Assembly (NCBI RefSeq): GCF_000147075.1
Contig: NC_014484.1
Location: 1,195,501 to 1,259,500 of the forward strand
Length of the DNA: 64,000 bases
Direction: 5' to 3'
DNA from: Spirochaeta thermophila DSM 6192
GTDB taxonomy: Bacteria; Spirochaetota; Spirochaetia; Winmispirales; Winmispiraceae
Part shown: in pieces, positions 32,601-35,389 of the stretch
How positions within the stretch are numbered: position 1 is the first letter of the stretch
How the letters are laid out: each line of letters starts with the position of its first letter
Program-made: the position numbers and the translations under genes
Notes under the pieces: model-generated
Databases searched by the model: none
Told to the model about the DNA's origin: nothing
The model's input: the letters and a program-made list of their open reading frames with translations, nothing else

Positions 32601-34057
32601 GAGGTCGGGAAGAGGTGGGTTTCCCCATAGACATACCCCTCACCTTTCCGGGGGAGGAGGAGCACGTTGAGCGCGTATTCCTGTCGTACGATATCCCCTT
32701 CAAAAGAGAGCTCTGCTCTCGAGAGCTCGAATCCCCCCCATGACGCGTCTCCGGAAAAGGCATACCCTTTTATCGCCTCCTTCGATCCCGAGATGTTCAC
32801 ATTGAATCGTCCGCTCATGCGCTCGAACGACGACATCCCCGGAGGTCGGGCCTCCGATATGTGCAACCTGCCCTGGAATGAGAAGGGATGGATGTCGACC
32901 AGTCCTTCCATGGAGGCCCTGCCGTATCGGGTGAAGGCAGTAAGATAATCCAGGTGAATCCGGGAATTCTCCCCATCGAGCGAAAAGGCTATCGAATGGA
33001 GATCCTTCGAGAGGAACGAAGCCGAACCGCTTCCCGTATAGCGGAGAGTGCGGGAGGGGAGATGATATGAGATTTGAAGGTGGGTCGAATACGTGGCCTC
33101 GAGGAAAAATTTCAGATTCGCGGGCATGCTCTCGAGGAGAGATCCCCTGAGTTGGGAGCTCGGTTGAAAGTCCTCGGTGAGCACCATGACGTTGAGTGTG
33201 GAGGACGACCATTCATATTCTCCAAGGAGGTCGTATGGGACCGATGCCTGGAGGTTCTGGAAGGAGATGGCGTCGTTTTTTATGGACAACAGAAACCGTT
33301 GGGTGGAGAGTTCCATCCTGGTTCCCTGCAACGAGCAGGAAAGCTCCATCTCCATGCTCGGTATGTCCGGGGAAAACGTGCCCCTCGCCCGTATCGGTAC
33401 GAAGAAGGTCCTCTCCGGGAGTACTCCCTCGTAGTATGCGGCGGTCTCATGAGAGACGTCCAAGAAGAGGGAAGCGCTCAGCGAGTATCGTGCGGATCCA
33501 TCGTTGCCGGGAGCGATGTCGACACGAAGGTCCCGACCCATGATACGAGACTGGTCAGGGAGTACCATCTGAAAGGTCCCACGACGGATGAGGACCTCGG
33601 AAGGTAGTGAAGAGAGTACTCGTTGGAGGGAAAGAGAAGAGGTGAGCCTGGAATGAGACGAGGCAGCATCCTCCGTGGGAGGTGTTTCGCCTGCATTCCA
33701 GAACACATGGACATCGGTGAGCTCGATTTTCTTCACCAGGGAGGAGACGTCCCCTCTGAGCAGGGCGAGCGCACTATAGGTGAGTACCCCCTCTCCCACG
33801 TATACGACGAACCTCTCTTGGGGGTCTCTCAATTCCACATGTTTGATTTTCACGAAAGGAAAGATGTAGGGCTCGATCGCGCCATAGGAGACTTCGATAT
33901 CCCATCGGGATTCAAAGTCGTGCACGACCTGGGTGACGAGAAATTGGAGACTTGGTGTTGCACTGTGCCTGAGGGTTAACGAAACTGCCCACGACAGCAC
34001 AAGAAAGGAGGTCACAAAAATGAGGAGCAGAAACGATGAGGGCAGTCGCTTCGTCAT
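29687..34057 (-). CDS. tamB: TamB-family translocation/assembly protein (DUF490/AsmA-like)
   Basis: 1456 residues. One N-terminal signal anchor (FLLLIFVTSFLVLSWAVSL), a long run of beta strands forming the AsmA-like groove, and a C-terminal TamB domain (for example FERSFYVREGSILFQEN and RITVRAEMRD) ending in a barrel-like strand, SLKWRFTY. TamB proteins span the periplasm and are linked to autotransporter assembly and phospholipid transport. It lies 19 nt before bamA rather than next to tamA, consistent with the view that TamB works with BamA in phyla without TamA. ATG 34057 precedes the anchor directly. Confidence 0.9.
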   Translation of the reverse strand: MTKRLPSSFLLLIFVTSFLVLSWAVSLTLRHSATPSLQFLVTQVVHDFESRWDIEVSYGAIEPYIFPFVKIKHVELRDPQERFVVYVGEGVLTYSALALLRGDVSSLVKKIELTDVHVFWNAGETPPTEDAASSHSRLTSSLSLQRVLSSLPSEVLIRRGTFQMVLPDQSRIMGRDLRVDIAPGNDGSARYSLSASLFLDVSHETAAYYEGVLPERTFFVPIRARGTFSPDIPSMEMELSCSLQGTRMELSTQRFLLSIKNDAISFQNLQASVPYDLLGEYEWSSSTLNVMVLTEDFQPSSQLRGSLLESMPANLKFFLEATYSTHLQISYHLPSRTLRYTGSGSASFLSKDLHSIAFSLDGENSRIHLDYLTAFTRYGRASMEGLVDIHPFSFQGRLHISEARPPGMSSFERMSGRFNVNISGSKEAIKGYAFSGDASWGGFELSRAELSFEGDIVRQEYALNVLLLPRKGEGYVYGETHLFPTSGPSSLRGQGLLLFRDLSLSDLTLALSGSQRRWHPLIPEQATIRGALEFDFDASRYRVSSMEDIVLSISEEADASLSLSLTPDQLSLSSSGTLYTVPFQGTFSLMLRDTQRFSGELLVENILYRFSGILRENRFSLSGDNLTFLLEEKEGRWVFRGKTRTLPLPMMPGQSPPQVSVDLSGEFHTAEEWWIYVPYLRVTDLFLLPSVRGNLSGRIAIDPSGIEAFDLSYGDSYSNLEGSMSLVLPEGLEGLLSRRRLAGEIVLQSKTSRERYGLQADISSSRIDLTVHAREAPLGRWTREKARGRLTATVNLEGPWNDPDLEGTVTLIEGSINGIPLAANGSFEKRSSTMSISLSELLLAQHRLSGFHLTYDLSSGTFRGETDLSLAVGRTTQSTPVSLYGTVEQRYEDLSLFLHSLPSLSCTGSLVLHKVSLVEGQPVWRFLFAYTRAGVTLRGGPSNAASLAFSFEEGTLDASFSSPLPLQGSIKGTIREEHLSLTLAFSRIDVKSFQPLFDLGVVRIREGILTGEVSLEGDPRDPTLTGNLEGRDLRGVFFLVPEEISSERLELEFQGEGFQILPSRITAGDATVILSGAFTREAWSLPFFQISIATLSPNRLHILYDFGTLQVDGYAAGFVTIEQTPQYLSIAGDILAESTVVTLAQRRTEAPGKGEPVPLEIDLRIQSGPDVQFVWPTRTLPILRLYADTGERLRYTAHGGEGSFSLEGNIGLRGGEVFYFERSFYVREGSILFQENQDKFDPRITVRAEMRDFYKGDPIRIYLVSYNTPLSQFSPRFESDPPLPPEDLNIVLGQRFNEEFAEGFLSPVSLVGLTTDLVSQFALMREFETSVKKTFGLDVFSVRTHLFQNVLESALQSPEYPLDRQSPSLGKYLDNTTILVGKYLGSDVFLESLFQIAAENPLASEVRSFGGFEVNVEVTVEWDTPFFLLSWKFAPEHPEELFIPDQTISLKWRFTY

Positions 34058-34116: not shown

Positions 34117-34764
34117 ATGTCATCTCGTAAAAAAAGCAGCGGCAGGACGATCCTTTCCCGTTTCGTCGTGTTCGAGGGTATAGACGGTGCGGGAACCACG
34201 ACACAACTCGGCAAGGTGGCTTCCTCCCTGAAGGGACGTGGTCACACCCTGTGGGAGACACGGGAACCGACCGACGGTCCTGTGGGGACTTTCATCCGGG
34301 AATGTCTTGCGAGCGGTCTCTCCTTCCCTGCTTCCGTCTATGCGTACCTGTTCGCCGCTGATCGAGATCTTCACGTCTTCGGAGAAGACGGGGTCATGGT
34401 TCGGGTGGGACGGGGGGAAATCGTACTCTGCGACAGGTATCTCCACTCCTCGCTCGCCTATCAGAGCGATTCCGCTCACACGAGGGAATTGGTAGAGGAT
34501 CTCAATCGCAGGTTCCCGCTCCCGGAGGTGGTGATCTATCTGGATACGCCCGTGGAGGAATGTCTCAGACGTCTTTCCTCGAGACCCCGGAAGGATCTTT
34601 TCGAGCAACGGGAGGTGCTCATGAACGTGGCTTCCCGATACAGAGAGGTGCTCCGGACATACGAAGCAGAAGGTGGCAAGGTTCTCTATGTGGATGGCAC
34701 ACAGCCGCCGGATCTCATCTTCCGGGAGATCTTGAAGTTTTTGGAAAGAACACTCGATATCTAA
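34117..34764 (+). CDS. tmk: Thymidylate kinase with a variant P-loop
   Basis: 215 residues. It should phosphorylate dTMP to dTDP in the cytoplasm. The N-terminal motif reads FEGIDGAGTTTQ: the P-loop lysine of GxDGxGKTTQ is Thr here. The rest is typical: TREPTDGPVG, CDRYLHSSLAYQ (DR-Y/H motif), IYLDTP and a LID with several basic residues (SSRPRKDLFEQR). ATG 34117 is the only reasonable start; the upstream in-frame ATG 34036 runs antisense into tamB. No ribosome site precedes it, so a leaderless or nearly leaderless mRNA is likely. Confidence 0.92.
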   Translation: MSSRKKSSGRTILSRFVVFEGIDGAGTTTQLGKVASSLKGRGHTLWETREPTDGPVGTFIRECLASGLSFPASVYAYLFAADRDLHVFGEDGVMVRVGRGEIVLCDRYLHSSLAYQSDSAHTRELVEDLNRRFPLPEVVIYLDTPVEECLRRLSSRPRKDLFEQREVLMNVASRYREVLRTYEAEGGKVLYVDGTQPPDLIFREILKFLERTLDI

Positions 34765-34777
34765 CTTAGAGTAAGGT

Positions 34778-35389
34778 ATGAAGCAAGGCCGGCATAGGAC
34801 GGTGGTTTCTCTCCTCCTCTTTCTCGTGAGCATCCTTCCCCTCCACGGGTACAAGGTGCTCTACGCTGAACAATGGTACCGGCTCTTTCACCTCCACTTC
34901 TATCAATACCCGGAACGGTGCGCCGAGAATATCTACTATCTCGAGCAGGCCTTGCGGGCAGACTTCGCCAATCCTCTGAATGCCCTTGCGAGGATCGGGA
35001 ATCCCACCGAATGGGAGTACTACCGCTACCTCTTCTCCATGCACGTGAGTCTCAAGCTTGTGGAGCAATACCTCCTCTGGGGCTCCAAATACGACAAGCA
35101 GGTTGCCTATTTCTACAACGCTCCGTGGAAAGAACAGAATCTCGAGAGTCTGGACAAGGCCGAGGCCCTCTATCGGTACGCACTGGTATACTGGGAAGAA
35201 GCGAGGAGATGGGCGGAAAAGGCGGAGCCCTTATCGTATCTCTTCCTTCCCGAGATACAGTACTGGGCCGATGAGCGGGCCAGGATAGCGAACGGGGAAC
35301 TCGATTACCGACAGATCATCGGCGAGCATCTCGCCCGCCTCCAATCGGTACGCGAGGCCTTCCTCGCCATGGACGAGGATACCTACTGA
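34778..35389 (+). CDS. Small exported protein of unknown function
   Basis: 203 residues with a clear signal peptide (TVVSLLLFLVSILPLHGYK). The mature part is helical and rich in Tyr and Trp (EQWYRLFHLHFYQYPERCAENIYYLEQAL; WEYYRYLFSMHVSLKLVEQYL is a representative stretch). No enzyme motif is visible. It starts 13 nt after tmk and ends 4 nt before the convergent queA stop, with no terminator between. Homologues in other spirochaetes are likely but cannot be confirmed here. A periplasmic location is inferred from the signal peptide. Confidence 0.8.
   Translation: MKQGRHRTVVSLLLFLVSILPLHGYKVLYAEQWYRLFHLHFYQYPERCAENIYYLEQALRADFANPLNALARIGNPTEWEYYRYLFSMHVSLKLVEQYLLWGSKYDKQVAYFYNAPWKEQNLESLDKAEALYRYALVYWEEARRWAEKAEPLSYLFLPEIQYWADERARIANGELDYRQIIGEHLARLQSVREAFLAMDEDTY

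What the first reader, a model, noticed from the sequence alone, without database searches (positions are those of the whole stretch)
34117..34764. Thymidylate kinase P-loop with Thr instead of Lys
The loop reads GIDGAGTTTQ (codons GCG GGA ACC ACG ACA), where the Walker A lysine is expected. The rest of the enzyme looks sound, and it is probably essential. Basic residues in the LID (SSRPRKDLFEQR) might supply the missing charge.
Basis: partly seen in the sequence, partly recalled or inferred. Interest (0 to 1): 0.5.

Follow-up and report, generated by a model that had tools for sequence, protein, structure and literature searches.

The report
Thymidylate kinases lacking the P-loop lysine
An enzyme needed for making DNA lacks a lysine that is usually treated as indispensable in its class, and this is not a flaw of one gene but a trait found across much of a bacterial class, in many myxobacteria, some cyanobacteria and some viruses.

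Summary
The protein at 34117-34764 is a thymidylate kinase (Tmk) with Thr27 (ACC, 34195-34197) where the Walker A lysine belongs. It is the only Tmk found in its one-contig genome; a sister species has the same codon, so a sequencing error is very unlikely. The trait is not peculiar to this gene: 95 of 112 genomes of the class that I read have Thr; of 52 readable Myxococcota 39 have Thr, 4 His, 4 Ser, though 9 of these also carry a lysine-bearing Tmk-like protein. Thr also occurs in 15 of 29 genomes of a cyanobacterial family, two Bacillus genomes (apparently in the normal tmk place), a haloarchaeon, other phyla and 21 viral contigs. The tree needs about 8 K/non-K changes, 5 forced. The model has the Tmk fold (Z 26.0). 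No new basic residue clearly replaces the lysine; a LID arginine is kept in 275 of 279. Best reading: an active type II dTMP kinase working without the lysine, relying on LID Arg156, Arg107, Mg2+ and loop amides. Activity and mechanism are inferred. Ten searches of an open-licence library showed no description of it.

The parts
34117..34764 (+). tmk, thymidylate kinase, 215 aa, Walker A lysine replaced by Thr27
   Evidence: the open frame extends upstream to an ATG at 34036, so the start codon is not certain
34177..34206 (+). P-loop GIDGAGTTTQ (residues 21-30)
   Evidence: D23, G24, G26 and T27 invariant in alignment A1 of 93 Thr-type sequences
34195..34197 (+). codon ACC, Thr27, at the Walker A lysine position
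   Evidence: same codon in the sister species
34432..34440 (+). Asp106-Arg107-Tyr108, the DR(Y/F) motif
   Evidence: Arg107 invariant in A1, Asp106 and Tyr108 nearly so
34570..34605 (+). LID segment RLSSRPRKDLFE (residues 152-163)
   Evidence: conservation
34582..34584 (+). Arg156, aligned to the catalytic LID Arg153 of E. coli Tmk
   Evidence: 90% or more in A1; E. coli residue numbers from PMC3169407 passages; the alignment of the two LIDs is my inference

Best explanation
This is the cell's only dTMP kinase, a type II thymidylate kinase with threonine in place of the Walker A lysine, and it is active. Phosphoryl transfer without the lysine is carried by parts that type II Tmks already have: the backbone amides of the glycine-rich loop, Mg2+ held by the next hydroxyl residue (Thr28; general P-loop knowledge), Arg107 of the DR motif, and the LID arginine Arg156, which closes over the ATP phosphates. 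Shown here: the substitution, its conservation, the single copy in this genome, the predicted fold, retention of these residues, and repeated changes between Lys and Thr/Ser/His in the family. Inferred: catalytic activity, essentiality, and that Arg156 takes over part of the lysine's charge role.
For: Single PF02223 match over cut-off in a 99.99% complete genome; ThyX found and ThyA not, so dTMP is presumably made by ThyX and needs a kinase (inference). Constraint against the sister species: dN 0.027, dS 0.159. Each of the 32 Thr-bearing genomes of the class listed has one match only at E 1e-5. Thr in 95 of 112 class genomes read. In Bacillus kwashiorkori and Bacillus PS06 the Thr-type gene is followed by yaaQ-, yaaR- and holB-like ORFs, the usual tmk place as I recall it, and the only other PF02223 match in each is a 27-29 bit dNK-like protein. 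Cyanobacterial K- and T-bearing Tmks are up to 66% identical, and some share a neighbouring ORF, as L381 (K) with L388, L390 and L392 (T). K/non-K changes: 8 fewest on the tree, 5 forced by starred branches, shuffled mean 34. Fold matches AMPPCP+TMP-bound A. aeolicus Tmk, Z 26.0, rmsd 1.6 over 189 residues. Arg in LID residues 153-159: 275 of 279 non-K, 65 of 89 K. All six other lysine-less Tmks scanned (cyanobacterial, Myxococcota, Bacillus, haloarchaeal, spirochaete, viral) pass the TIGR00041 cut-off.
Against: No activity measurement was found or made. The Walker A lysine is described as universally conserved in P-loop enzymes (PMC8517177, abstract). The LID-Arg link is not significant once relatedness is counted: 5 independent pairs on starred branches, median p 1. 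At exact column 156 the link is weaker: Arg in 245 of 279 non-K and 29 of 89 K rows, and the LID varies in length. Four lysine-less sequences have no Arg in 153-159 (L038, L039, L215, L318). Arg156 is not the only enriched candidate: His86 is 97% in non-K against 58% in K, weighted. Nine of the 47 lysine-less Myxococcota genomes also carry a Tmk-like protein with the lysine, one of them (G453) a good-scoring ordinary-length Tmk too, so there the Thr form need not be the sole dTMP kinase.
Confidence: 0.6

Rival explanations
1. A cation, another residue or a different donor replaces the lysine: a monovalent ion or second metal sits in the space freed by Thr27, or His86 helps, or the enzyme prefers another phosphoryl donor than ATP.
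For: No Lys or Arg column is special to the lysine-less set: those over 80% are 61, 83, 107, 152 and 156, and all but 156 are about as common in K-type enzymes; His86 is enriched, 97% against 58%. Thr or Ser, which could coordinate an ion, make up 275 of 279 substitutes (271 Thr, 4 Ser, 4 His).
Against: No direct evidence of an ion site or of another donor. His86 is also present in the Lys-bearing relatives nearest to the Thr forms. His at the lysine place occurs in four sequences. The state changes between close relatives, which argues against a changed donor.
Confidence: 0.22
2. The protein is a weak or non-catalytic Tmk and another enzyme phosphorylates dTMP.
For: The Walker A lysine is generally held to be catalytic (PMC8517177, abstract). 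Nine lysine-less Myxococcota genomes have a second Tmk-like protein with the lysine, as do two of the 16 genomes (L330, L331).
Against: No second Tmk in this genome; one match only in each of 32 class genomes and in each of 29 cyanobacterial genomes, 15 of them Thr; 38 of 47 lysine-less Myxococcota genomes have no second match at E 1e-10; D23, R83, R107 and R152 invariant in A1; constraint; the Bacillus locus.
Confidence: 0.1
3. Local sequencing error or degraded gene.
For: None found.
Against: Same codons in the sister species G041, a two-base difference from either Lys codon, and Thr in 95 of 112 class genomes read.
Confidence: 0.005

Closest known systems
Type II thymidylate kinases (E. coli, A. 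aeolicus, T. maritima, T. thermophilus; PF02223, TIGR00041)
   Same: Fold, Asp-Gly in the P-loop, DR motif, LID arginine; Z 26.0 to A. aeolicus 4s35_B, 25.5 to T. maritima 3hjn_A. That all four are type II is partly recalled.
   Different: Thr instead of the Walker A Lys; Leu161 where E. coli has Arg158 (my alignment; residue names from PMC3169407 passages)
Type I thymidylate kinases (human, yeast)
   Same: Fold (human 1e2g Z 25.2) and reaction (inferred)
   Different: Type I carries an Arg in the P-loop after the Asp (PMC3169407 passages); here Gly24, and the Arg is in the LID
T. thermophilus Tmk K16M (PDB 5x8j), an engineered mutant
   Same: Lacks the same lysine (sequence, title) and gave a crystal structure
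   Different: A laboratory mutation in one enzyme; here a natural, conserved state. Its activity was not seen.

Membership tests
dTMP kinase (PF02223 / TIGR00041) | Profile score over the curated cut-off | tested here: met
   118.3 bits vs 27; 134.4 vs 83.25
dTMP kinase (PF02223 / TIGR00041) | Thymidylate kinase fold over the whole chain | tested here: met
   AF2 pLDDT 95.3; Z 26.0, 189 residues aligned to 4s35_B, model range 15-214
dTMP kinase (PF02223 / TIGR00041) | DR(Y/F/H) motif | tested here: met
   Asp106-Arg107-Tyr108; Arg107 invariant in A1; the motif's name is recalled
dTMP kinase (PF02223 / TIGR00041) | dTMP kinase activity | not testable with these tools
   Needs purified enzyme or complementation
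P-loop NTPase with canonical Walker A, GxxxxGK(S/T) | Lysine after the last glycine | tested here: not met
   Thr27; so it is filed as a lysine-less variant, not as a canonical Walker A enzyme
Type II thymidylate kinase | P-loop Asp followed by Gly | tested here: met
   D23-G24; criterion from PMC3169407 passages
Type II thymidylate kinase | Arginine in the LID at the catalytic place | tested here: met
   Arg156 at the place of E. coli Arg153 by my alignment; 90% or more in A1; its catalytic role here is untested

The most novel reading that the evidence does not exclude
A natural, repeatedly evolved group of P-loop kinases has dispensed with the Walker A lysine in an essential reaction, using a rewired charge scheme (LID arginine, bound cation, or both), so the lysine is not a universal catalytic requirement even in nucleotide kinases.
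Probability: 0.5. Interest if true: 0.75.

Novelty: new variant of a known kind. Interest (0 to 1): 0.58.

Why it matters
The Walker A lysine is widely used as a diagnostic of activity and is mutated to make 'dead' P-loop enzymes (general knowledge). A kinase of an essential pathway lacking it in many lineages, with relatives that keep it (cyanobacterial pairs up to 66% identical), is a ready natural experiment on what the lysine does. It also warns against calling P-loop proteins inactive because the lysine is missing.

Tried and rejected
Sequencing error: rejected. Second tmk in this genome: not found (the six other hits at E up to 1 are 10-14 bits and cover only query positions 3-44, the P-loop end). 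A new Lys or Arg elsewhere standing in for the lysine in all members: not found; His86 and Arg156 are the enriched basic columns. LID Arg as a proven compensation: seen in raw counts but not significant after relatedness. One single loss: not supported; the tree needs 8 changes with 5 forced by starred branches (quick method, 48 of 112 inner branches open); FastTree gave 7. Direction of change was not inferred. These patterns see only exact Thr loops, not Ser or His. Ten paper searches listed nothing that I recognised as describing natural lysine-less Tmks; I saw listings, and passages of three papers only, and the library holds open-licence papers only, so this is weak evidence of absence. 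The activity of the K16M mutant was sought and not found.

Rows dropped or not read: Myxococcota, 53 of 58 genomes had a match; 50 were read first, G427 and G448 later (both Thr), and G420 is cut before the P-loop. Of 399 Tmk sequences over 150 aa, 368 distinct ones entered the alignment. A1 holds P0001 and 92 of 189 picked sequences; the picks were ordered by likeness to P0001, and all rows of A1 are Thr-type. Two class genomes gave no Tmk match at E 1e-5 (G246, G362). In the phylum sample, 11 of 198 genomes had no match.

Change made on checking: the second Tmk-like proteins of Myxococcota were fetched and read; they carry Lys, apart from one Arg form, and I raised the 'another enzyme' rival from 0.08 to 0.10 and lowered the best explanation from 0.62 to 0.60; the cation/residue rival rose from 0.20 to 0.22 because His86 had been left out.

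Full report
Observation. Window 34117-34764 (+) encodes a 215-residue thymidylate kinase whose P-loop reads GIDGAGTTTQ. Thr27, codon ACC at 34195-34197, stands where the Walker A lysine is expected. Pfam and NCBIfam both place the protein well over their dTMP kinase cut-offs. The three solved Tmks whose alignments were shown carry Lys at this place; the engineered T. thermophilus mutant 5x8j has Met (titled K16M mutant).

The genome. The window lies in a one-contig genome of 2,472,645 bases, 99.99% complete. The size matches what I recall for Spirochaeta thermophila DSM 6192; no call names it. PF02223 has one match over cut-off, the gene itself. ThyX is found and ThyA is not. Upstream, on the other strand, is a TamB-family ORF; after tmk come a 203-residue ORF without a Pfam match and, on the other strand, queA- and ruvB/ruvA-type genes.

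Not an error. The sister species (G041) has the same GGA ACC ACG ACA codons at the loop; 12 of 215 residues differ, dN 0.027, dS 0.159.

Distribution in the phylum. A DNA pattern for the Thr form of the loop hit 162 of 392 genomes of the phylum; the reversed control pattern hit 2. The pattern misses some loop variants, so I read the Tmks themselves. Of 112 genomes of the class (own, genus, family and class rows) 95 have Thr, in 17 families, and 17 have Lys (9 in f4, 6 in f49, 1 each in f51 and f53). Of 53 genomes from other classes 42 have Lys and 11 Thr. These are the genomes I fetched, not a random sample. Small genomes suggest that f4 is Borreliaceae (my inference). In one search the 32 Thr-bearing class genomes each have one match.

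Beyond the phylum. The scan of named genome contigs for EGxDGxGT..Q stopped at its limit with 117 stretches; 115 contain the motif in an ORF that matches a Tmk profile, some cut by the end of the stretch. By record title those classed as Thr include 55 Spirochaetota and 35 Myxococcota, and also two Microcystis, two Bacillus, Salinarchaeum, Conexibacter, a Gemmatimonadota, two Planctomycetota and others. All 21 viral stretches hold a Tmk-like ORF with Thr. In the family of Microcystis, 29 of 30 genomes have a match, one each: 15 Thr, 14 Lys. Elsewhere the Thr loop is rare: 4 of 146 and 1 of 199 genomes in samples of the phyla of Microcystis and of B. kwashiorkori, centres included.

Myxococcota. 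Of 58 genomes 53 have a match. Of the 52 whose loop can be read, 39 have Thr, 4 His (EGIDGSGHTTQ), 4 Ser and 5 Lys. Ten genomes have further matches. In nine lysine-less ones these carry Lys: a Tmk-like protein with an open frame of about 570-610 residues in each, and in G453 also an ordinary-length Tmk (EGIDGAGKTTQ). The tenth, G414, has Lys in its main Tmk, and its two further copies have Lys and Arg. So in nine of 47 lysine-less genomes the odd enzyme is not alone; in 38 no second match reached E 1e-10.

Other genomes. Among 16 genomes outside the spirochaetes, 11 have a single PF02223 match; the second matches of the other five carry the lysine and look to me like deoxynucleoside kinases (3) or about 600-residue Tmk-like proteins (2).

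A replacement in Bacillus. In B. kwashiorkori and Bacillus PS06 the Thr-type gene is followed by yaaQ-, yaaR- and holB-like ORFs, the usual tmk neighbourhood as I recall it; the seven other genomes of the B. kwashiorkori family that are held have Lys. In the tree both fall inside a starred group (SH-aLRT 99) made up otherwise of cyanobacterial sequences and one viral one, so a transferred gene probably replaced the resident one.

History. On a tree of 115 representatives, with the trait column masked, K versus non-K needs 8 changes, 5 forced by starred branches, against 34 in shuffles. Lys-bearing sequences sit among Thr-bearing ones in the f49 family and in cyanobacteria; L240 (Gemmatimonadota) is a Thr form among canonical Lys forms. 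Gain and loss cannot be told apart, and 48 of 112 inner branches are weak.

What replaces the lysine. In 93 aligned Thr-type sequences the invariant residues are E20 D23 G24 G26 T27 E50 P51 G57 D82 R83 H86 R107 S111 Y115 R152, with R61 and R156 among the nearly invariant ones. In the 368-row alignment, weighted, two basic columns are enriched in non-K rows: 156 (Lys or Arg 86% against 52%) and His86 (97% against 58%). His86 is also present in the Lys-bearing groups nearest to the Thr forms, so it is less telling. Arg156 aligns with E. coli Arg153, named the catalytic LID arginine of type II Tmks (PMC3169407, passages). Arg within 153-159 occurs in 275 of 279 non-K and 65 of 89 K sequences. Of the eight cyanobacterial K enzymes with Lys24 in the loop (EGIDKAGK or EGIDKSGK) six lack a LID Arg there, a layout like type I with its basic residue in the P-loop. 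That fits a LID arginine that matters more when the lysine is gone, but five independent comparisons are too few to show it.

Fold. The AF2 model (pLDDT 95.3) matches the AMPPCP+TMP complex of A. aeolicus Tmk at Z 26.0 and rmsd 1.6 over 189 residues. The fold does not by itself show activity.

Literature. PMC8517177 (abstract and passages) speaks of universal conservation of the Walker A lysine and of its structural role; the present set is an exception. PMC9599734 (passages) describes arginine fingers in Tmks. In the listings and passages that I saw from ten searches no natural lysine-less Tmk is described.

Verdict. A real, conserved and recurrent absence of the Walker A lysine in an enzyme that is very likely active; the mechanism is plausible but untested. 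New variant of a known kind.

Noticed in passing
L335, L340, L353, L357 (Myxococcota phylum sample): Tmk with His at the Walker A lysine position (EGIDGSGHTTQ); L405, L413, L414 and L416 have Ser, and a further copy in G414 (L431) has Arg (EGSDGSGRSTH).
   Followed up: partly
L375, L379, L382, L383, L386, L387 (cyanobacterial family): Lys-bearing Tmks with an extra basic residue in the P-loop (EGIDKAGK or EGIDKSGK) and no Arg in LID residues 153-159, a type I-like layout among type II relatives.
   Followed up: partly
L224, L228 and cyanobacterial Tmks: The Asp of the DRY motif is Thr or Pro (TRYYFSS, PRYYFSS) in these Tmks, with or without the lysine.
   Followed up: no
L228 and L224 (Bacillus kwashiorkori, Bacillus PS06): The resident tmk seems replaced in place by a cyanobacterial-like, lysine-less gene.
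   Followed up: partly
L293-L313 (viral contigs): 21 viral contigs carry a lysine-less tmk.
   Followed up: partly
L422-L429, L432 (Myxococcota phylum sample): Second Tmk-like proteins with Lys (EGIDGSGKT), open frames of about 570-610 aa, beside a Thr-type Tmk; function of the extra part not examined.
   Followed up: partly
window 34778-35389 (+): 203-residue ORF just downstream of tmk, with a signal-like start (by eye) and no Pfam match.
   Followed up: no
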